A program made the translations under genes and the position numbers. Below are positions 19,246 to 51,149 of a DNA stretch of 64,000 nucleotides, piece by piece. The number at the start of each line of letters is the position of its first letter. Position 1 is the stretch's first letter. This DNA is from Actinacidiphila acidipaludis (GTDB lineage Bacteria; Actinomycetota; Actinomycetes; Streptomycetales; Streptomycetaceae). Location of the stretch: the NCBI RefSeq assembly GCF_019890725.1, contig NZ_JAINZZ010000035.1, forward strand, positions 1-64,000, written 5' to 3'. The notes under the pieces are model-generated. The model did not search any database and was not told the origin of the DNA. It saw nothing but the letters and a program-made list of their open reading frames with translations.

Positions 19246-22245
19246 ATGGAGGTATCCGAACGGAGCGGCAGCAGCGGGTCAGCGGTCGTGCACGCTCCGG
19301 AATTCGTGGGCCGCGAGCGAGAGATGGCCGAGCTCGCGCGGGCCCTTGCCGCGCCGCCGACGGCGGTGTGGATCGAAGGCGAGGCGGGGATCGGCAAGAG
19401 CAGGCTGCTGCGCGAGTACCTGGCCTGGACGGCGGGCCGGGCCGACGGTGCCGGCCGGGTGCTGGTGGCGCGCTGCCCGCCGCTGCACCACCCGCAGACC
19501 CTGGGCCCGCTGGTCGACGCGTTGCGGCAGGCCACAGAGACGGTGGCGGGGCTACCGCTGAGCCCGCTGGCAGGCGCGCTGCGGCCGCTGTTCCCCGAGT
19601 GGGGCGGTGATCTGCCGGCCGCGCCTGGGCCCGCCGAGGACGCGACGGCCGTCCGGCACCGGGTGTTCCGGGCGCTGGCCGAATTGCTGGCCCGTCTGGA
19701 CGTGGCGGTGCTGGCCGTGGAGGACGTGCACTGGGCGGACGAGGCGACGCTGGAGTTCCTGCTCTTCCTGGCCGCTGGCCCGCAGTCGATAGGCCTGGTG
19801 GTGACCTGCCGGCCCGAGGACGTGGTCGGCGGTTCGCTGCTGCGGCGGCTGGCCACGCGGCTCGCCGCCGACTCGGCCTCGGCAGCGGGGCGGCTTCGGC
19901 TGGCCCTCGGGCCACTGGACGTGGCCGCCACGGCGCGGCTGATGTCGTCGATGCTGGCCGGGGAGCACGTCTCCGACAGGTTCGCCGGGTTCGTCCACCA
20001 GCGCACCGAGGGCGTGCCGCTGGCGGTCGAGGGCGCGGTGCGGCTGATGGCCGACCGCGCCCACCTCAGCTTCGGCGCCGACGGCTGGGGAGGTTGCCGA
20101 CCGGACGAGATCGGCGTGCCCGCCACGGTCCGCGACATGGTGCTGGAGCGGCTCGGACGGCTCGGCCCCGAGGGGCGGGCGGTACTCCAGGCCGCGGCGG
20201 TGCTGGGCCGGCCCGCCGACGAGGCCACTCTCCGCGCCGTGACGGGACTTGCGGCCGGGCGAGCCCAGGCGGGCCTGATCGAGGCCCTCGGCGGCGCCCT
20301 GCTGGACGACGACGGCTGGGGCCAGGTGGCCTTCCGGCACGTGCTGGCCCGCCAGGCGGTGTACGAGGCGACACCGGCGTCCCGCCGACGGACGCTGCAC
20401 CGGCGCGCCGGACGGACCCTGGAGGCGCTGACGCCGCCGCCCGTCGGGGAGTTGGCTGACCACTTTCGCGTGGCCGGGGAGAAGAGTGAGTGGTCCCGTT
20501 ACGCCGAGTGGGCCGCCGACCTGGCGCTCGACTCCGGCGACGAGACGACCGCGGGTGCGCGTCTGCACGACCTGGTGGTCAACGCCGACCTGCGACCCGC
20601 TTCGATTCTCCGGCTGATCAGGAAGTTTCCGTTCGCGTCGTTCGCCGGGCCGGCCCGGTTCCGGGAGCTGGTGCCGCCGCTGCGGGCCGCTCTGGCCTCG
20701 GGGGCATGCACCCCAGGACAGGAGGCCGACATCCGCGCCCAACTCGGCAACGTGCTGCTGTTCATGGGAGAGGACGATGCGGGCCGCGCCGAGCTGAAGC
20801 GGGCGATCCCGCACCTGGGCCATGATCCGGCCGAGGCCGCGCGGGCGATGATGCGCCTGGGCTGGCCGCGCAGCAGCAGCTGGCCCGTCTCGTCCCACCT
20901 GCGGTGGCTGGAGCGCGCCGCCGAGCTGGAAGTGCCGTCGATGACGGCCGCCGACCGGGTGGGCTTCGCGGCGGACCAAGCCACCGCCCGGCTCATGCTG
21001 GGCGAGACGGACGGGTGGGCGCTGGTGGCGCGGATCCCCGATGACGCCGACGCCCCGGCGGAGTGGCAGCAGATCACCCGCGCCAACGTGAACATCGGCG
21101 ACATGGCGATGTTGTGGGGTCGGTATGCCGTTGCCGCGCAGCGGCTCGGCACGGCCCTCGTGCAGGCCGACCGCCGCCGGTACCGGCGCTACGAGTCCGT
21201 CGCCATGGTGACCCGGACCCATCTGGACTGGCTCACCGGCGCCTGGGAAGGCCTGGCCGAGCGGGCGGCGGCGCTGGCCGAGTCCGAGGACATCCTTCCG
21301 CTCGCCCGGCTGGAGTTGCTGTTCGTCGTCGGGCAGTTGCACGCCGTGGCGGGCGCCTACGGGCCGGCCGCCCAGCAGCTGCGATCGGTGCTGGACGGGG
21401 AGGTGGGCAGCGGGGCGCTCGCGGACTCGATGGAACCCGCCGCGGCGCTGGCCCGGCTGGCACTGTCCGCCGGCCGCGTCGAGGAGGCGCTGGAGATCAC
21501 CGGGGAGCCGGCCGACCTGATCGCCCGCAAAGGCACCTGGGTCTGGGCGTCGGACCTCGGCCCGGCGCGGGTGGCCGCGCTGGCTGCCGCCGGCCGCCTC
21601 GAGGAGGCCGCGCGACTGACTGCGGCGTTCGCGCGGGGGCTACGAGGCCGCGACGCCCCGGGGCCGCGCGCCGGACTGGCCACCTGCCGGGCGATCCTGG
21701 CCGAGGCGCGCGGCGAACACGCCTCGGCCGCGGGGCTGTTCGCCCGCGCGGCCGTGGCCTGGCAAGCACTCCCCCGCCCCTACGAAGCACTGCTGGCCCA
21801 GGAGCGGCAGGCCGGCTGCCAGATCGCCGCGGGAAAACGTGAGACGGGGCTTTCCCTCCTGGTCGAGGTTCGGGAACGGCTGATCGCCCTGGGGGCCCTC
21901 GGTGACGCCGACCGGGTGGTGGCCTGCTTGCGTGAGCACGGTGTCGCAGCGAAGCGGCCCCAGCGCGGCGGCCGGCGTGCCCATGGCAGCCGGTTGTCGC
22001 CCCGGGAGCTGGAGGTGACCCAGCTGGTGGCCACCGGACGCAGCAACCGGCAGATCGCCGACGAGCTGTTCCTGTCACCGAAGACGGTGGCCCAGCACCT
22101 GAGTTCGGCCATGCGCAAGCTCGGCGTCTCCTCGCGCACCGCCCTGGCGGTCCTCGCCACCGGCGCGGGCACGGCCGACGCGCAGTTCGCGCAGGGGGAT
22201 GTACCGGACCGGCCGTCCGGCGGCGTGACCACCAAAACTAGGTAA
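19246..22245 (+). CDS. large LuxR-family ATPase regulator (LAL type)
   Basis: The 999-residue cytoplasmic protein begins with an AAA/STAND ATPase module: [15 protein letters not shown], Walker [12 protein letters not shown] near residue 49, and Walker B-like [14 protein letters not shown] near 160. A long TPR-like helical middle follows, and the LuxR/GerE helix-turn-helix is at the C-terminus ([37 protein letters not shown]). Such proteins are usually activators that sense a ligand and hydrolyse ATP. The ATG at 19246 has GAGGGG five bases upstream. The secreted protease genes downstream are possible targets. Confidence 0.93.
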
Positions 22246-27512: not shown

Positions 27513-30500
27513 TCACGAGCACGTCCGCTGGTACGGGAGGCCTGGCACGTAGCGGTCCCATTCGGCCCGGTCCAGGCCGCGGCCGGCACGGCTGCAGGCA
27601 CGCACGACGGCATGGGCGCGAGCGTCGATGATCTCGGTGAGGTCGTCGAGGTAGACGAGATGGTCGCCACCGCCGGTCGCCAGCGTGCGGTTGTCCGCGC
27701 TGAAGGCCACCGCCGTGATGATGGCCGCATGCCCACGGCTCTGCAGCAGCAGATGCGGCTGTGCGGGTTCGGTGACGTCCCAGAGAAGCGTCCGCTCGTC
27801 GTTCCCTGCGGTCGCCAGGAGGTGCCCGTCGGGGCTGAACGCGACTGAGCGCACCCAGCCGGTGTGCTCGAGCAGCGGGGTGGCGGCCATCCGCGGACGC
27901 TCGCGGTCACGGACGTCCCACAGGATGACGCTGGTGTCGACACTGCCGGTAGCAAGGGTGCGGCCGTCGGGACTGAACGCGAGCGTGGTCACCCGGTTGG
28001 TGTGTCCGCTCAGTGTGGCTGAACGCCGGTAGTGCGCCGGGTCGGTGACGTCCCAGAGGATCGTCGTGGAGTCGTAGCTGCCGGTAGCAAGGGTGCGGCC
28101 GTCGGGACTGAAAGCCATCGCCGCGATTTGGGCTGTGTGCCCGGCGGGCGAGGCGATCTGCGTCGGCCGGCCCGGGTCGGTGAGGTTCCAGAGGATCACC
28201 TTGTCGCCGCCGGTGGCGAGTACGTGGCCTTTCGGGTCGAAGGCCAGCGAGATCACCGCATCGTTCTGCGCCGGAAGACTTCCGATGTGGTTGGGGGCGT
28301 CCGGGACGTGCACGTCCCACAGGCCCGTGGTTCCGTCCTCTCCGCTGACGGCGAGGGTGTGCCCGTCAGGGCTGAAGGCCAGTGCGTCGACCCAGCCGTT
28401 GTGCGCCGTGAAGTGGGCGGCCTTGCGCGGGAGCTTGCGATCGCTCATGTCCCACACGTTGACGGTGCCGTCCGCGCTGCCCGTGGCCAGCACTCTGCCG
28501 TCCGGGCGATAGCCCACGGCGCGCACCGCGTCGCGGTGACCGCCGAGCCTGAATGTCGGTTTGATCCCGGCCTCCGTACCGCTGCGCCAAAGGATCACGG
28601 TGTCGTCGGCACTGCCGGTTGCCAGCGTGTTCCCGTCAGGGCTGAGTGCGACTGCCGCGGTCAGGTTTCCGCCGGCGCCACCGACCAGTGTGTGCTGGAT
28701 CGGCCGGGTCGGGTCGGTGATGTCCCAGCCGAGCATCCTGTGGTCGCCGCCCACAGCGAGCACGCTGTGTCCGCCGGCGGTGAACCGCACCGCGCTCGCG
28801 GGGCCGTCCCACCCACCGGTGAGTCGGGCGATCACCTGCGGCTTGGCGCGGTTGTGTGTGTCCCAGAGCCGGACGGTGCCGTCGCCGTCGCCGGTGGCCA
28901 CGCGGCGCCCGTCGGGGCTGAACGCCAGTGAGCCTGTTCCGCCGCTGTTCTGCTCGGTCAGCGTGGACAGGTGGGCCGGGGCGTCCCGATGCCGGACGTC
29001 CCACAGGATGGCGGTGCCGCCCGCGTCACCGGTCGCCAGCGTGTGCCCGTCCCGGCTGAAGGCCGCTGACAGGACCGGCTGCCGGTGGCTGGTGAGGCGA
29101 GTGATCCTCTCCGGCGCCATCCGACCGGAAGTGTCCCAGAGGACAACCGTGTCGTCAGCGCTGCCGCTGGCCAGAGTGGTCCCGTCGGGACTGAACACCA
29201 GCGCGTCGACGGTGGCGGTGTGGCCACTGACGCTACTGAGCGGTGTGGGACGGCTGGGGATGGTGACGTTCCACAGAGCGATGCTGCCGTCCGCGATCCC
29301 GGCGGCGAGGGTGCGCCCGTCGGGGCTGAACGCCAGCGCGTCCACCCGGGCGCTGGTGCGCAGGGAGCCGAGCCGGCGGGTGCCGTCCCATATGATCACC
29401 TGGTTGTCGGCGCCGCCGGTGGCCACGATGTGGTTGTCCGGGTGGAATGCGACCGCTGAGACGGCCCGCGTGTGGCCGGCCAGTGTCCCCGCGTAGGGGT
29501 CGAGCAGGCCGGTGAGGAGACTCGCGGTGGTGGCCGTGTCGCTGTGCAGCCGGTCAGCGGCGATGCCGAGCATGAGTGCCAGTTGTGGCGCGTTCCCGCG
29601 GGCGCTGTCGGCTTGGTCGAGCAGGGAACGGGCGATGGCGGCCCGCTGCTGGGCGCGAGCCTCATTACGACCCTGGTAAGCCAGCACGGTCGCGACCACG
29701 GACAGCACGAGCAGGAGGGCGAGCGCGCTGATGGCACCGGTCCGCACCCTGCGGCGTCGCTGCTCGGCCCCTACGCTCGCATCGAGGAACTCCCTTTCCG
29801 TGGGGCTGAGCTGGTCCGGGTGGTCGGCCGCCCAGTCCCGCGCTCGATGTAATCGGTCGCCCCGGTGAAGGCGGTCGGCGTCCCGCCGGTCCCGCAGCCA
29901 CTCGCCTGCGGCCTCGGAGAGTTCCTGCTGTACCAGGAGCCCGGCTCGGTCGGCCTTGATCCAGTCGCGCAGCCGACCCCAGACGCGGAGCAGCGCCTCG
30001 TGGGAGATCTGGCCGGTATCGCCGTCCACGGTGATCAGGCGGGCTCGGGCAAGCTGGTCGCGGGCAGTCGCTACGGCGGGGGCGTGCTCCACCAGCTCGG
30101 TCAAGTCGATCCGGCGGCGCGTGTCCTCGGTCCCCTCCCCGAGGCTGACCATCCGCAGCAGCATCATGCGGGCCGCCTGCTTCTCGTCTGCGGCGAGTGC
30201 CCCGTACACGGTCTCGGCCTGACGGGTGACCGCGTTCCACACCCCACCGGTGGCCCGATACCCGGCCAGAGTGAGCGTGCGGCCCCGATGGCGATGTTGC
30301 CAGGTGAGGAGCAGGGCGTACGACAGCAGCGGCAGCGTCCCGGCAGCGAAGTCGTGTTCGGCCCGCAGGTCGTGCAGCAGCAGTTCGACCAGCCCGGGTT
30401 CCAAGGCGAGACCGGCGGCATCGGCCGGCTTCTGGATCGCTTCGCGGAGCTGCTCGGGATCCATCGGCCGAACCCGCAGCGTGGAGTCGTCGAGTACGCG

Positions 30501-31877
30501 GGCCAGCTCCGGGTAGGCCAGGCAGTGCGCGTAGAAGTCGGCGCGCACCCCGAGGACGACCAGAGCGTGCTCCTGGGCTGCTGCGCACACCGCCCGGACG
30601 AAGTGCGCACGTTCGTCGGCGTCCTGGCAGACGGTGAACAGCTCCTCGAACTGGTCCACCACGAGCAGCAGTCGGCTGTCCCCCGCGTTCCTGCCGCCCG
30701 CGTAACGGCGCAGCGCCTGGTCCACGACGTGATGCAACCTGGTTGCGTCGGCGCCGAGTTCGGTGCGGATGGCGTCTGCGGTCACGCCGGCGGGACCGGC
30801 CAGCCGGGTGGCCAGGGTATCCAGCGGGTGAGCGCCCGGCGTGAGGACCATGCTCGGCCAGGCCGAAGAGCCGCGCACCGGAAGTTCACCGCGGGCCACG
30901 GCCGGCACCACCCCGGCCCGCAGCAGTGAGGACTTGCCCGAGCCCGACAGACCCACCACGGCCACCGGTGCCCCCGTCCGCCAGCACGTGGCCATGTGGT
31001 CGAGGAGCTCACGGGTGAGCTGTTCGCGGCCGAAGAAGAAGCGGGCGTCGTCGGCGGTGAACGGCTCGAGACCCCGGTAGGGGCAGACTCCATCGGCCAG
31101 CGGTTCCCCGGTGTCCGCGAGGTCGGTGACCGGCGGGTTGGCGCCAACGGGATTCCTGGCAAGGACAAGGTCGCCGGCCTGGCCGCTGAGAAACCGAACC
31201 GGCGCCGGAATACCGCGCAGTGGCAGCTCCCGCCGGAGGTGACGGAAGGCACCCTCCACTGTGAGCTCGGGCAGCCCGGCGGGGTCACCCTCGCGCAGCA
31301 GAGTCATCAGAGCCCCGGTGAAGCTGGTGTACCGCTCCCCAGGAAGGGCCAGGGCGAGTTCGTCGGCGGACGCGGAGGACAGCACGTAAGCCCCGGCGAG
31401 CGGCGCGAGTTCGAAAGCATCGGTGGCAGCGGTACCCAAGGAGCCACGAGCCCGCCCGGAGTAGCAGCAGTCCAGCACCACGACGACGGTGCGCGCACGG
31501 CAGACCGACAACGCGTCCGCGACCACCGCGTACGGCAAGGCCTTGAAGCCCAGACCCTCGCTGAAGTGGTCGGTCTCACGGGTGGCCAGGTGCAGCTTGT
31601 TGCCGGGGCTGACCAGCCCGTGACCGACATAGTGGAAGTAGAAGACGTCCTCAGCCTGCTTTGCCGCATCGATCAGGGCGTTGCCCAGTTCGATCGGGTG
31701 GGGATCGACGATCGGTGGGAGCAGGTTCTCCGGGCGCAAGCCGCAGCGATCGATCAGGACGCTGCCCAGGTCCCGTACCGTGTCGGCGACAGCGGGGACG
31801 TCCGGAAGCCGGGAGCCGGCAACGTGCGTGCCGGTGCCGGCCAGCAGAGCCCGAGTCCCGGCCGAGTGCAGGTTCAT
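27513..31877 (-). CDS. caspase-like protease / STAND NTPase / WD40-repeat protein
   Basis: The 1454-residue protein joins three modules. The N-terminal caspase-like (C14/metacaspase-type) domain has its catalytic pair in HYVGHG (His86) and DCCYSG (Cys138). The nSTAND NTPase starts at CPYRGLEPF (265), with Walker A GLSGSGKSS (Lys315) and Walker B LLLVVDQFEELF (402-413). A membrane-like helix lies at 714-735. Fourteen WD40 repeats follow (about 800-1430), enough for two seven-bladed propellers. Known relatives are predicted to sense an invader or stress through the repeats, oligomerise with NTP and unleash the protease. Some repeats are nearly identical at DNA level. Its start overlaps the stop of the EACC1-type gene upstream (ATGA), so the two form a unit. 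Confidence 0.95.
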   Translation of the reverse strand: MNLHSAGTRALLAGTGTHVAGSRLPDVPAVADTVRDLGSVLIDRCGLRPENLLPPIVDPHPIELGNALIDAAKQAEDVFYFHYVGHGLVSPGNKLHLATRETDHFSEGLGFKALPYAVVADALSVCRARTVVVVLDCCYSGRARGSLGTAATDAFELAPLAGAYVLSSASADELALALPGERYTSFTGALMTLLREGDPAGLPELTVEGAFRHLRRELPLRGIPAPVRFLSGQAGDLVLARNPVGANPPVTDLADTGEPLADGVCPYRGLEPFTADDARFFFGREQLTRELLDHMATCWRTGAPVAVVGLSGSGKSSLLRAGVVPAVARGELPVRGSSAWPSMVLTPGAHPLDTLATRLAGPAGVTADAIRTELGADATRLHHVVDQALRRYAGGRNAGDSRLLLVVDQFEELFTVCQDADERAHFVRAVCAAAQEHALVVLGVRADFYAHCLAYPELARVLDDSTLRVRPMDPEQLREAIQKPADAAGLALEPGLVELLLHDLRAEHDFAAGTLPLLSYALLLTWQHRHRGRTLTLAGYRATGGVWNAVTRQAETVYGALAADEKQAARMMLLRMVSLGEGTEDTRRRIDLTELVEHAPAVATARDQLARARLITVDGDTGQISHEALLRVWGRLRDWIKADRAGLLVQQELSEAAGEWLRDRRDADRLHRGDRLHRARDWAADHPDQLSPTEREFLDASVGAEQRRRRVRTGAISALALLLVLSVVATVLAYQGRNEARAQQRAAIARSLLDQADSARGNAPQLALMLGIAADRLHSDTATTASLLTGLLDPYAGTLAGHTRAVSAVAFHPDNHIVATGGADNQVIIWDGTRRLGSLRTSARVDALAFSPDGRTLAAGIADGSIALWNVTIPSRPTPLSSVSGHTATVDALVFSPDGTTLASGSADDTVVLWDTSGRMAPERITRLTSHRQPVLSAAFSRDGHTLATGDAGGTAILWDVRHRDAPAHLSTLTEQNSGGTGSLAFSPDGRRVATGDGDGTVRLWDTHNRAKPQVIARLTGGWDGPASAVRFTAGGHSVLAVGGDHRMLGWDITDPTRPIQHTLVGGAGGNLTAAVALSPDGNTLATGSADDTVILWRSGTEAGIKPTFRLGGHRDAVRAVGYRPDGRVLATGSADGTVNVWDMSDRKLPRKAAHFTAHNGWVDALAFSPDGHTLAVSGEDGTTGLWDVHVPDAPNHIGSLPAQNDAVISLAFDPKGHVLATGGDKVILWNLTDPGRPTQIASPAGHTAQIAAMAFSPDGRTLATGSYDSTTILWDVTDPAHYRRSATLSGHTNRVTTLAFSPDGRTLATGSVDTSVILWDVRDRERPRMAATPLLEHTGWVRSVAFSPDGHLLATAGNDERTLLWDVTEPAQPHLLLQSRGHAAIITAVAFSADNRTLATGGGDHLVYLDDLTEIIDARAHAVVRACSRAGRGLDRAEWDRYVPGLPYQRTCS
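27943..28112. repeat. exact 35-base direct repeats inside the WD40 region
   Basis: The sequence starting CTGCCGGTAGCAAGGGTGCG at 27943-27977 recurs exactly at 28078-28112, a period of 135 bases or 45 codons, equal to one WD40 repeat. It points to recent duplication or gene conversion between neighbouring blades. Confidence 0.8.
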
Positions 31878-32332
31878 CCGGCGGTGTCCTCCTCGCCGGC
31901 CGCTGGAGACCCGGCGGCGACGGCTGGCGTGCTGGCCGCGCTTGCGGACAGTTGCGCGGCAAGGTCGGCAACTGCGGCTGTCCCGAAGTCCGGTACGTCG
32001 GTGGCCGTCAGCTCGTACGACGTGCCGTCCGGCCTGGTGACTTTCAGCGTGACATCACTCGTGCGGTGCCGGATCCAGGCGATCAGGACACTCGCAACGG
32101 CCGTCGCGATGCCGCCAGGCGCAAGGGCGACCGCCAGCGCCTCCACCCCCGCGCCGAGCGTGCCGGGCACGACGGGCCCGTCCACCAACCGGACTCTGCC
32201 GCGTAACCCGTCCTCGTTGAGCAACCACTCCCGCAGGGACCGCAGTTCATCCGCCGCGCGGTGTCCCTCGACCTCCAGCGTCACGTCCACGGGCCTTCCC
32301 TCAGCTCTTGCCGACACGCTGACACGCACCAT
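31874..32332 (-). CDS. EACC1-type (effector-associated constant component) small membrane protein
   Basis: The 152-residue protein opens with a beta-rich segment (VRVSVSARAEGR), then ADELRSLREWLLNEDGLRGRVRL, a hydrophobic helix around GGIATAVASVLIAWI, and then DVTLKVTRPDGTSYEL. This pattern matches the EACC1 family described as the constant partner of caspase/trypsin-like effectors and STAND proteins in actinobacterial conflict systems. It should tether or regulate the effector at the membrane; the mechanism is unknown. The ATG at 32332 was preferred over a TTG at 32344; neither has a clear ribosome site. The stop overlaps the caspase gene start. Confidence 0.82.
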   Translation of the reverse strand: MVRVSVSARAEGRPVDVTLEVEGHRAADELRSLREWLLNEDGLRGRVRLVDGPVVPGTLGAGVEALAVALAPGGIATAVASVLIAWIRHRTSDVTLKVTRPDGTSYELTATDVPDFGTAAVADLAAQLSASAASTPAVAAGSPAAGEEDTAG

Positions 32333-49913: not shown

Positions 49914-51149
49914 CTAGGCGGTGAGTTCGGTGGGCAGGGCGGGTTCGGTGGTGTCTGACTCGTTCGGGTGGCCGGCTTTGGCGAGGAGTTCGCGGCTCAT
50001 GTAGCGGCGGGCTTCGGTCCATTCGTCGTTCTGCTCGGCCAGGACGGCGCCGACCAGGCGGATCAGGGCGGTGCGGTCGGGGAAGATCCCGACGACGTCG
50101 GTGCGGCGCCGGATTTCCTTGTTCAGCCGTTCCTGCGGGTTATTGGACCAGATCTGCCGCCATGCCTCCCGCGGGAAAGCTGCGAACGCCAGCACGTCGT
50201 GCTGGGCGGCATCCAGATGCTCGGCAGCCTTGGGAAACTTCGCCTCCAGAGCGGTCAGGACGTGCCGCTTCTGGGCGTGGACAGCTTCGGCGTCGGGTTG
50301 TTCGAAGACCGTCCGCAGCAGCGTCGCCACCCACGGCTGGGCCGATTTCGGGACCTGGGAGAGCAGGTTGCGGGCGTAGTGGGTGCGGCAGCGCTGCCAG
50401 GAGGCTCCGGGCAGCACCGCTGCGATCGCGCCGACCAGGCCGGTGTGGGCGTCGGAGATGACGAGCTGGACGCCGGACAGGCCGCGGGCGGTCAGCGAGC
50501 GCAGGAACGCCAGCCATCCCGCGCCGTCCTCCGCGGTGGCGACATCGATGCCGAGGATCTCGCGGTGTCCGTCGGCGTTGACACCCACCGCGACCAGCGC
50601 GTGGACGCCTGTGATCCGGCCGCCTTCGCGGACCTTCTGGGTCAGGGCGTCGACCCACACGAACGCATACGGGCCGGCGTCCAGGGGCCGGTTGCGGAAC
50701 GCGGTGACTTGCTCGTCGAGGTGTTTGGCCATGGCGCTGACCTGCGACTTCGACAGTTGAGTGACGCCCAGGGACTCTGCGAGCTTTTCGACCCGGCGGG
50801 TGCTGACTCCGAGGAGGTAGGCGGTGGCGACCACGGAGATGAGGGCTTGTTCGGCTCGGCGGCGGCGTTCCAGCAACCAGGTCGGGAAATAGCTGCCGGA
50901 CCGCAGTTTCGGGATGGCCAGTTCGATCGTGCCGGCGCGGGTGTCCCACTCGCGTGGGCGGTATCCGTTGCGCTGGTTGACGCGTTCCTCGCTGACTTGC
51001 CCGTATGCGGCGTTGCAGGCGGCGTCGGCGTCCGCGGACATCAACGCGTCGGCGAACGCCTTGACCATCTGCCGCAGCAGATCGGGACTCGCCGAGGCCA
51101 GGTTCTCCTCGGTCAGAGCGTGCAGGGGCAGACTGTCGGGTGCGGTCAT
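49914..51149 (-). CDS. IS256-family transposase
   Basis: The 411-residue protein has the Transposase_mut fold with the catalytic acids in FVWVDALTQK, LVISDAHTG and NNPQERLNKEIRRR. It has the usual length for the family and no frameshift. AAGGAG is nine bases upstream of the ATG. With matching terminal repeats on both sides the element could still move. Confidence 0.95.
   Translation of the reverse strand: MTAPDSLPLHALTEENLASASPDLLRQMVKAFADALMSADADAACNAAYGQVSEERVNQRNGYRPREWDTRAGTIELAIPKLRSGSYFPTWLLERRRRAEQALISVVATAYLLGVSTRRVEKLAESLGVTQLSKSQVSAMAKHLDEQVTAFRNRPLDAGPYAFVWVDALTQKVREGGRITGVHALVAVGVNADGHREILGIDVATAEDGAGWLAFLRSLTARGLSGVQLVISDAHTGLVGAIAAVLPGASWQRCRTHYARNLLSQVPKSAQPWVATLLRTVFEQPDAEAVHAQKRHVLTALEAKFPKAAEHLDAAQHDVLAFAAFPREAWRQIWSNNPQERLNKEIRRRTDVVGIFPDRTALIRLVGAVLAEQNDEWTEARRYMSRELLAKAGHPNESDTTEPALPTELTA

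What the first reader, a model, noticed from the sequence alone, without database searches (positions are those of the whole stretch)
27513..32332. Caspase-STAND-WD40 protein coupled to an EACC1-type partner: a predicted suicide or anti-invader system
One protein joins a caspase-like protease with an intact His86/Cys138 pair, a STAND NTPase with intact Walker motifs and fourteen WD40 blades. A small membrane protein of EACC1 type sits directly upstream with an ATGA overlap. This matches the architecture proposed for NTP-dependent biological conflict systems in multicellular bacteria. The trigger and protease substrate are unknown. No further effector or constant component is encoded next to it, so this looks like a minimal two-gene form.
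Basis: partly seen in the sequence, partly recalled or inferred. Interest (0 to 1): 0.75.

Follow-up and report, generated by a model that had tools for sequence, protein, structure and literature searches.

The report
Membrane caspase receptor with EACC1 partner
A bacterium related to Streptomyces carries a known two-gene system in which a caspase-like protease and a molecular switch appear to sit inside the membrane while a large two-propeller sensor appears to hang outside, so the protease may answer signals from outside the cell.

Summary
ORF 27513-31877(-) encodes a 1454-aa caspase / nSTAND1 / 14-blade WD40 protein with H86, C138 and Walker motifs intact. An EACC1 gene overlaps it upstream by ATGA and probably starts at GTG 32290, not 32332. 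Both match curated models (PF19953; NF047832 "caspase_w_EACC1"). The locus belongs to the two-gene EACC1 system of Kaur et al. 2020; two genes is that system's normal form, not a minimal one. Over 100 database proteins share the layout.

It is present in 107 of 107 aligned proteins (this one included), with more basic residues on its N-side in all. Beyond it cysteines are rare apart from two invariant ones in the tail. Relatives carry HTH, TIR or kinase domains where this one has the caspase. This predicts caspase and switch inside, WD40 sensor outside: a transmembrane receptor rather than a sensor of intracellular invaders.

EACC1 follows the caspase, not the receptor chassis. Whether it is a membrane protein is unresolved. 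Ligand, substrate, cell death and defence are untested. New member of a known kind, with a testable topology.

The parts
31874..32290 (-). EACC1 (effector-associated constant component 1), 138 aa with GTG start; the ORF can be extended to ATG 32332 (152 aa)
   Evidence: PF19953 104.3 bits on the 152-aa form; close homologues start at the equivalent of 32290; a Shine-Dalgarno-like GAGGGAAGG precedes that GTG (read)
31874..31877 (-). ATGA overlap of EACC1 stop and caspase-protein start
   Evidence: read
27513..31877 (-). caspase - nSTAND1 - TM - 14-blade WD40 protein, 1454 aa
31173..31877 (-). caspase (metacaspase-type) domain, residues 1-235; H86, D136, C138
   Evidence: NF047832; conservation; fold
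31083..31151 (-). variable linker, residues 243-265, no conserved P1-type residue
29877..31082 (-). nSTAND1 NTPase, residues 266-667; Walker A at 309, Walker B at 403
   Evidence: PF20703 412 bits
29679..29735 (-). predicted transmembrane helix, residues 715-733, AISALALLLVLSVVATVLA
   Evidence: hydropathy 2.67; equivalent helix in 107 of 107 aligned proteins, this one included
27633..29507 (-). fourteen WD40 blades (two seven-bladed propellers expected), residues about 791-1415
   Evidence: (PF00400), anchors
27516..27632 (-). C-terminal tail (residues 1416-1454) with the two invariant cysteines C1428 and C1453
   Evidence: this protein and 106 of 106 other aligned proteins

Best explanation
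This is an EACC1-caspase two-gene system whose large protein is a single-pass membrane receptor. Two WD40 propellers outside the cytoplasmic membrane sense an unknown ligand. The signal crosses one transmembrane helix to the nSTAND1 switch inside, which on exchanging nucleotide oligomerises and brings N-terminal caspase domains together so that they become active. EACC1, encoded just before the receptor with overlapping genes, binds the caspase domain as its dedicated regulator or adaptor (or first substrate). The caspase, expected to cut after Arg or Lys like metacaspases, then cleaves cytoplasmic proteins, most plausibly causing growth arrest or death of the compartment that was hit. Shown here: domains, active-site residues, caspase fold of the model, family membership, association of EACC1 genes with caspase genes. 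Predicted from sequence: transmembrane helix, inside/outside orientation, tail disulfide. Inferred only: oligomerisation, EACC1's role, substrate class, outcome.
For: TM helix in 107 of 107 aligned proteins (this one included); K/R in the 15 residues before it average 6.3 against 2.5 after, N-side higher in 107 of 107. In a second set of 77 nSTAND1-WD40 ORFs from genome contigs (slightly overlapping the first, e.g. Nonomuraea sediminis), TM in 77 of 77 and N-side higher in 76 of 77, one tie. C1428 and C1453 are kept in 106 of 106 others. The part beyond the helix holds an even number of Cys in 91 of 107 and 65 of 77. After clustering at 50% identity it is 31 of 37, against 15 of 37 for nSTAND1 and 20 of 37 for caspase; Cys density there without the two tail residues is 1.4 per 1000 against 8.1 in nSTAND1. 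In place of the caspase the same chassis carries HTH in 59 of 77 by my iterated profile, TIR in 2, kinase in 1, caspase in 5; Pfam confirmed HTH in 5 of 10 examined, TIR in 1, kinase in 1. HTH, TIR and kinase act in the cytoplasm, so the N-terminus should be inside. The host itself holds an HTH-nSTAND1-TM-WD40 paralogue. EACC1 was found in 3 of 6 chassis loci with a caspase and 0 of 74 without. Of 77 EACC1-type caspases over cut-off in 296 class genomes, 43 have EACC1 directly upstream on the same strand. Median identity to this protein falls from caspase (0.52) and nSTAND1 (0.50) to WD40 (0.335), as expected for a sensor.
Against: No experiment. Topology rests on hydropathy, the positive-inside rule and cysteine pattern, not on a trained predictor, and no set of cytoplasmic WD40 proteins was available as control. 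Homologues are related, so the counts are not independent; at 40% clustering (9 clusters) the even-count signal no longer separates WD40 (8 of 9) from nSTAND1 (7 of 9). Two invariant Cys could bind metal. 34 of 77 caspases over cut-off have no EACC1 over cut-off directly upstream (one search scored at most 15 candidates per genome, so EACC1 may be undercounted), and 3 of 6 chassis loci with a caspase have none. One of those three (L129) has also lost both catalytic residues. Of the 74 loci without a caspase 18 are under 18 kb, so neighbours may be cut off. Three of ten N-terminal regions examined have no Pfam match, two of them counted as HTH only by my own profile. Nothing shows interaction of EACC1 with the caspase.
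Confidence: 0.62

Rival explanations
1. Model of Kaur et al. 2020: EACC1 is a membrane-spanning sensor that activates the caspase, which cuts itself free of its C-terminal domain; that domain is the effector released against an intracellular invader.
For: Proposed in PMC7159879 section 33. Hydropathy of the EACC1 segment reaches 1.6 or more in 110 of 125 sequences.
Against: A WD40 domain beyond a transmembrane helix could not diffuse away as a cytoplasmic effector. The caspase-nSTAND1 linker has no conserved Arg, Lys or Asp. The EACC1 model breaks the hydrophobic stretch into a strand and a 15-residue helix (mean pLDDT 69.6). On this chassis the N-terminal domain is exchanged too.
Confidence: 0.15
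2. Gasdermin-like logic: EACC1 is the substrate; activated caspase cleaves it and releases a hydrophobic segment that damages the membrane.
For: A small, conserved, partly hydrophobic protein encoded next to a protease with variable partner domains, a layout like that of bacterial gasdermin loci (seen only in listings; details recalled).
Against: No gasdermin family match in EACC1 or the other three neighbouring ORFs scanned. The C-terminal part of EACC1 shows no conserved cleavage-like motif (column counts to residue 123).
Confidence: 0.15
3. Receptor for development or envelope stress rather than conflict: a membrane receptor that uses a caspase to trigger programmed death or remodelling of hyphae in response to the cell's own or neighbours' signals.
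For: Predicted extracytoplasmic sensor. Most relatives of the chassis carry an HTH output, that is transcriptional control. The neighbours scanned by Pfam are mostly stress, signalling and transport genes.
Against: Patchy occurrence: EACC1 over cut-off in 41 of 296 class genomes. In the 15 other genomes of the genus the (truncated) listing shows one distant caspase-bearing relative that extends into WD40 (G303, 42% over residues 3-933 in a 1885-aa frame) and no close one; a developmental gene would be expected to be more constant.
Confidence: 0.3

Closest known systems
EACC1 two-gene system (System 4 of Kaur et al. 2020, eLife 9:e52696, PMC7159879)
   Same: 5' EACC1 gene, 3' gene with N-terminal caspase and variable C-terminal part; STAND NTPases are among the C-terminal parts named there. 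12 of 42 EACC1-caspase pairs fetched from other genomes of the class have this same caspase-nSTAND1-WD40 layout.
   Different: Predicted extracytoplasmic WD40 sensor. In section 33 the C-terminal domains are treated as effectors and, for this system, only a PBP domain is called extracellular.
Database homologues annotated 'caspase, EACC1-associated type' (e.g. Streptomyces sp. MMS24-I31, P0108; Streptomyces nodosus, P0110)
   Same: Same layout; P0108 is also 1454 aa with 211 differences.
   Different: No structural difference found; between P0108 and this protein the linker (0.30) and the WD40 part (0.17) differ most, the caspase least (0.06).
Apoptosome / NLR-like STAND proteins (Apaf-1-type, bacterial NLRs)
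   Same: STAND switch with WD40 sensor controlling a caspase-fold protease (analogy, recalled).
   Different: Protease fused in the same chain; single transmembrane helix predicted to put the sensor outside.
HTH-, TIR- and kinase-nSTAND1-TM-WD40 proteins of actinobacteria
   Same: Same nSTAND1, transmembrane helix, WD40 part of similar length and two-cysteine tail (74 of 77 ORFs, the five with caspase included).
   Different: Cytoplasmic output domain is not a caspase, and no EACC1 was found near them.

Membership tests
EACC1-caspase two-gene system (Kaur et al. 2020) | EACC1 domain encoded by the 5' gene | tested here: met
   PF19953 104.3 bits, cut-off 23.6; ATGA overlap
EACC1-caspase two-gene system (Kaur et al. 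2020) | caspase-superfamily peptidase at the N-terminus of the 3' gene product | tested here: met
EACC1-caspase two-gene system (Kaur et al. 2020) | EACC1 has a single transmembrane helix with a small-residue patch | tested here: inconclusive
   hydropathy of 1.6 or more in 110 of 125 but the model shows strand 50-55 and helix 61-75 (pLDDT 69.6)
EACC1-caspase two-gene system (Kaur et al. 2020) | variable C-terminal module after the caspase | tested here: met
   nSTAND1 plus WD40; 30 of 42 other pairs did not show this layout
EACC1-caspase two-gene system (Kaur et al. 2020) | acts in defence or cell suicide | not testable with these tools
nSTAND1 STAND NTPase | profile match with intact Walker A and B | tested here: met
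   PF20703 412 bits; GLSGSGKS 309, LLLVVDQ 403
Caspase / metacaspase (peptidase C14) | His-Cys dyad in a caspase fold | tested here: met
Caspase / metacaspase (peptidase C14) | cleavage after Asp (caspase) or Arg/Lys (metacaspase) | not testable with these tools
   D136 invariant in 55 of 55 rows, as in metacaspase D-x-C motifs (recalled), suggests Arg/Lys
Bacterial gasdermin-protease operon | gasdermin gene beside the protease | tested here: not met
   no gasdermin match at E 0.01 in EACC1 or the other three neighbouring ORFs scanned

The most novel reading that the evidence does not exclude
Actinobacteria use a modular family of single-pass transmembrane STAND receptors: an extracytoplasmic double WD40 propeller closed by a two-cysteine tail, one membrane helix, an nSTAND1 switch inside, and an exchangeable cytoplasmic output (HTH, TIR, kinase or caspase). 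The caspase version with EACC1 is a transmembrane 'apoptosome' that turns an outside signal into intracellular proteolysis.
Probability: 0.62. Interest if true: 0.62.

Novelty: new member of a known kind. Interest (0 to 1): 0.42.

Why it matters
The EACC1 systems are predicted from sequence. The word EACC1 occurs in 13 held papers, of which only the two eLife papers that named and extended the system concern it, and further searches listed no experiment on it. If the sensor is outside the membrane, such systems do not primarily watch for invaders already in the cytoplasm. They would answer something at the cell surface, such as phage adsorption, envelope damage or a neighbour's signal. The output then is the N-terminal domain, not the C-terminal 'effector'. 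This turns an open question (what triggers bacterial caspases) into simple topology and cysteine tests.

Tried and rejected

L142 and L124 looked at first as though caspase and STAND were separate genes; three-frame reading shows broken frames instead, so I did not count them as natural splits; their ORFs as they stand are among the 77. The small gene upstream of the host's second caspase resembles EACC1 at its start only (hhalign probability 36%, no Pfam match): undecided. In one search the helix of L170 was not found because the WD40 match was placed too early; one search shows it at 665 (2.13).

PADLOC on ten neighbouring ORFs gave partial matches to common domains only (a methyltransferase part of mads_2, a kinase part of PD-T4-6, an HTH part of capH, AAA parts of several), no set that makes a known system; the rest of the window was not scanned with PADLOC. 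Searches for print mention of an extracytoplasmic WD40 domain on a caspase or STAND protein listed no paper that is about it; figures and supplements were not seen, and figure 2A of PMC3501461 may hold one.

Full report
WHAT IS THERE. The minus-strand ORF 27513-31877 encodes 1454 residues starting at ATG 31877. Pfam gives nSTAND1 (PF20703, 412 bits, residues 266-667) and WD40 (PF00400, 356 bits); NCBIfam gives NF047832 'caspase, EACC1-associated type' (181 bits, cut-off 140) over residues 9-219; PADLOC gives 'caspase' (31 bits) and a HEAT-ARM_XIII match on the WD40 part (139 bits). The upstream gene matches EACC1 (PF19953, 104 bits) and its TGA overlaps the ATG of the large gene. Close homologues of EACC1 begin at the position of GTG 32290, so the protein is probably 138 aa. 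Fourteen blade anchors lie 39-46 residues apart, after setting aside one spurious match at 1023.

FAMILY. The layout is that of System 4 in Kaur et al. 2020 (PMC7159879; passages and the whole of section 33 read): a 5' EACC1 gene and a 3' gene with an N-terminal caspase and a variable C-terminal part. nSTAND1 is named in PMC8195603 as sometimes present in EACC1 systems (passages). In 296 genomes of the class, 77 caspase matches are over the NF047832 cut-off and 58 EACC1 matches over the PF19953 cut-off; 43 form a pair with EACC1 directly upstream on the same strand, this locus included. One search scored at most 15 candidates per genome, so EACC1 may be undercounted. EACC1 can also lie downstream (L029, L065). 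I fetched the 42 pairs from other genomes; 12 of 42 have caspase-nSTAND1-WD40, and 22 of 42 have at least one hydrophobic helix after the caspase by hydropathy alone. So two genes is the standard form and this architecture is common.

A TRANSMEMBRANE RECEPTOR. Between nSTAND1 and WD40 lies AISALALLLVLSVVATVLA (715-733, hydropathy 2.67). Of the 120 homologues listed (of 187 found), 107 of 1350-1600 aa, this one included, were aligned. All 107 have a helix of hydropathy 1.6 or more here and more K/R in the 15 residues before it than after it (means 6.3 and 2.5), and all 107 carry the two tail cysteines 1428 and 1453. Beyond the helix cysteine is otherwise rare: after clustering at 50% identity and leaving out the two tail residues it is 1.4 per 1000, against 8.1 in nSTAND1. 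The count is even in 91 of 107 unclustered, in 55 of 64 clusters at 70% (nSTAND1 30, caspase 36), in 31 of 37 at 50% (nSTAND1 15, caspase 20), and in 8 of 9 at 40%, where nSTAND1 with 7 of 9 does not differ. A second set, 77 nSTAND1-WD40 ORFs from 80 genome-contig loci (3 loci gave no ORF with both domains; the two sets overlap slightly), shows the helix in 77, N-side excess in 76 with one tie, the two-Cys tail in 74 and an even count in 65, two of these being zero in ORFs cut off by contig ends. In the 12 pairs of the class survey the helix is present in all 12, K/R is higher before it in 10 and equal in 2, and the Cys count beyond it is even in 10.

OUTPUT SWAP. In the 77 ORFs the region before nSTAND1 holds HTH in 59, caspase in 5, TIR in 2, kinase in 1; the other 10 are unassigned or truncated. 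These counts use profiles that I iterated from single examples. Pfam, run on 10 of these regions, found HTH_31 in 5, kinase in 1, TIR in 1 and nothing in 3; two of those three are counted as HTH only by my profile. HTH binds DNA, so the N-terminus should be cytoplasmic; with one helix the WD40 part is then outside. The host has one more member of this chassis on contig C109: HTH_31 (32.7 bits), nSTAND1, helix with 7 K/R before and 3 after, WD40, four Cys beyond the helix. EACC1 was found in 3 of the 6 chassis loci with a caspase and in 0 of 74 without, 18 of which are short, so it goes with the caspase, not the receptor.

EACC1. Hydropathy suggests a membrane segment in 110 of 125 sequences, as published, but the model, of modest confidence (mean pLDDT 69.6), has b-a-b-b-a-b-b-a with the hydrophobic stretch split into a strand (50-55) and a 15-residue helix (61-75). 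Fold matches are weak and mixed. I regard its membrane nature as open.

MECHANISM. Outside ligand, WD40, helix, nSTAND1 oligomer, caspase activation with EACC1 as caspase partner, proteolysis inside. Median identity to this protein falls from caspase (0.52) and nSTAND1 (0.50) to WD40 (0.335) and linker (0.27). No conserved cleavage residue was seen in the linker, so release of a C-terminal effector by self-cleavage has no sequence support.

CONTEXT. In 15 other genomes of the genus the listing, which is truncated, shows one distant caspase-bearing relative reaching into WD40 (G303, 42% over residues 3-933, 1885-aa frame); the best long match outside the host is 54% over residues 3-811 in another family (G311). 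The short-chain dehydrogenase and the regulator on one side are conserved in two relatives whose 14-15 kb stretches around them lack the pair. Twenty ORFs of the window were scanned with Pfam: SpoIIE phosphatases, histidine kinases, MMPL transporters, ClpB, Hsp70, a beta-lactamase-fold protein, a Mutator transposase and others; PADLOC on ten neighbours gave only partial matches to common domains. Relatives of the large protein occur in 390 plasmid-collection records, 61 with at least 80% of the query in one place, all below 60% identity. This fits an accessory gene pair outside any recognised defence island.

PAPERS. Passages read: PMC7159879 (and its section 33), PMC8195603, PMC3501461, PMC5587647, PMC10907252, PMC13236601. 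Everything else was seen only as search listings.

Noticed in passing
L185 (own genome, contig C67), 445-3105 and 3114-3575, minus strand: Second EACC1-type caspase of the host (131 bits, below the NF047832 cut-off): caspase, hydrophobic helix, then a solute-binding-like stretch (below Pfam cut-off) and a VWA domain that would lie outside, with a small upstream gene resembling EACC1 only at its start.
   Followed up: partly
L186 / L002 (own genome, contig C155, around 20482-20619): Orphan EACC1 match (41.5 bits) with no caspase found within the fetched 5-kb stretch.
   Followed up: no
L129, 8013-8693: A caspase-nSTAND1-TM-WD40 protein (Saccharopolyspora sp. HNM0983) that has lost both catalytic residues and has no EACC1 found in the locus.
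   Followed up: no
L142 and L124: Two relatives of the caspase receptor with broken reading frames beside EACC1 genes that read through.
   Followed up: partly
L125 and L119: TIR-nSTAND1-TM-WD40 (Nocardia pseudobrasiliensis) and kinase-nSTAND1-TM-WD40 (Mycobacterium gordonae): same chassis, other outputs.
   Followed up: partly
window 49917-51149: Mutator-family transposase, a possible sign of mobility in the window.
   Followed up: no
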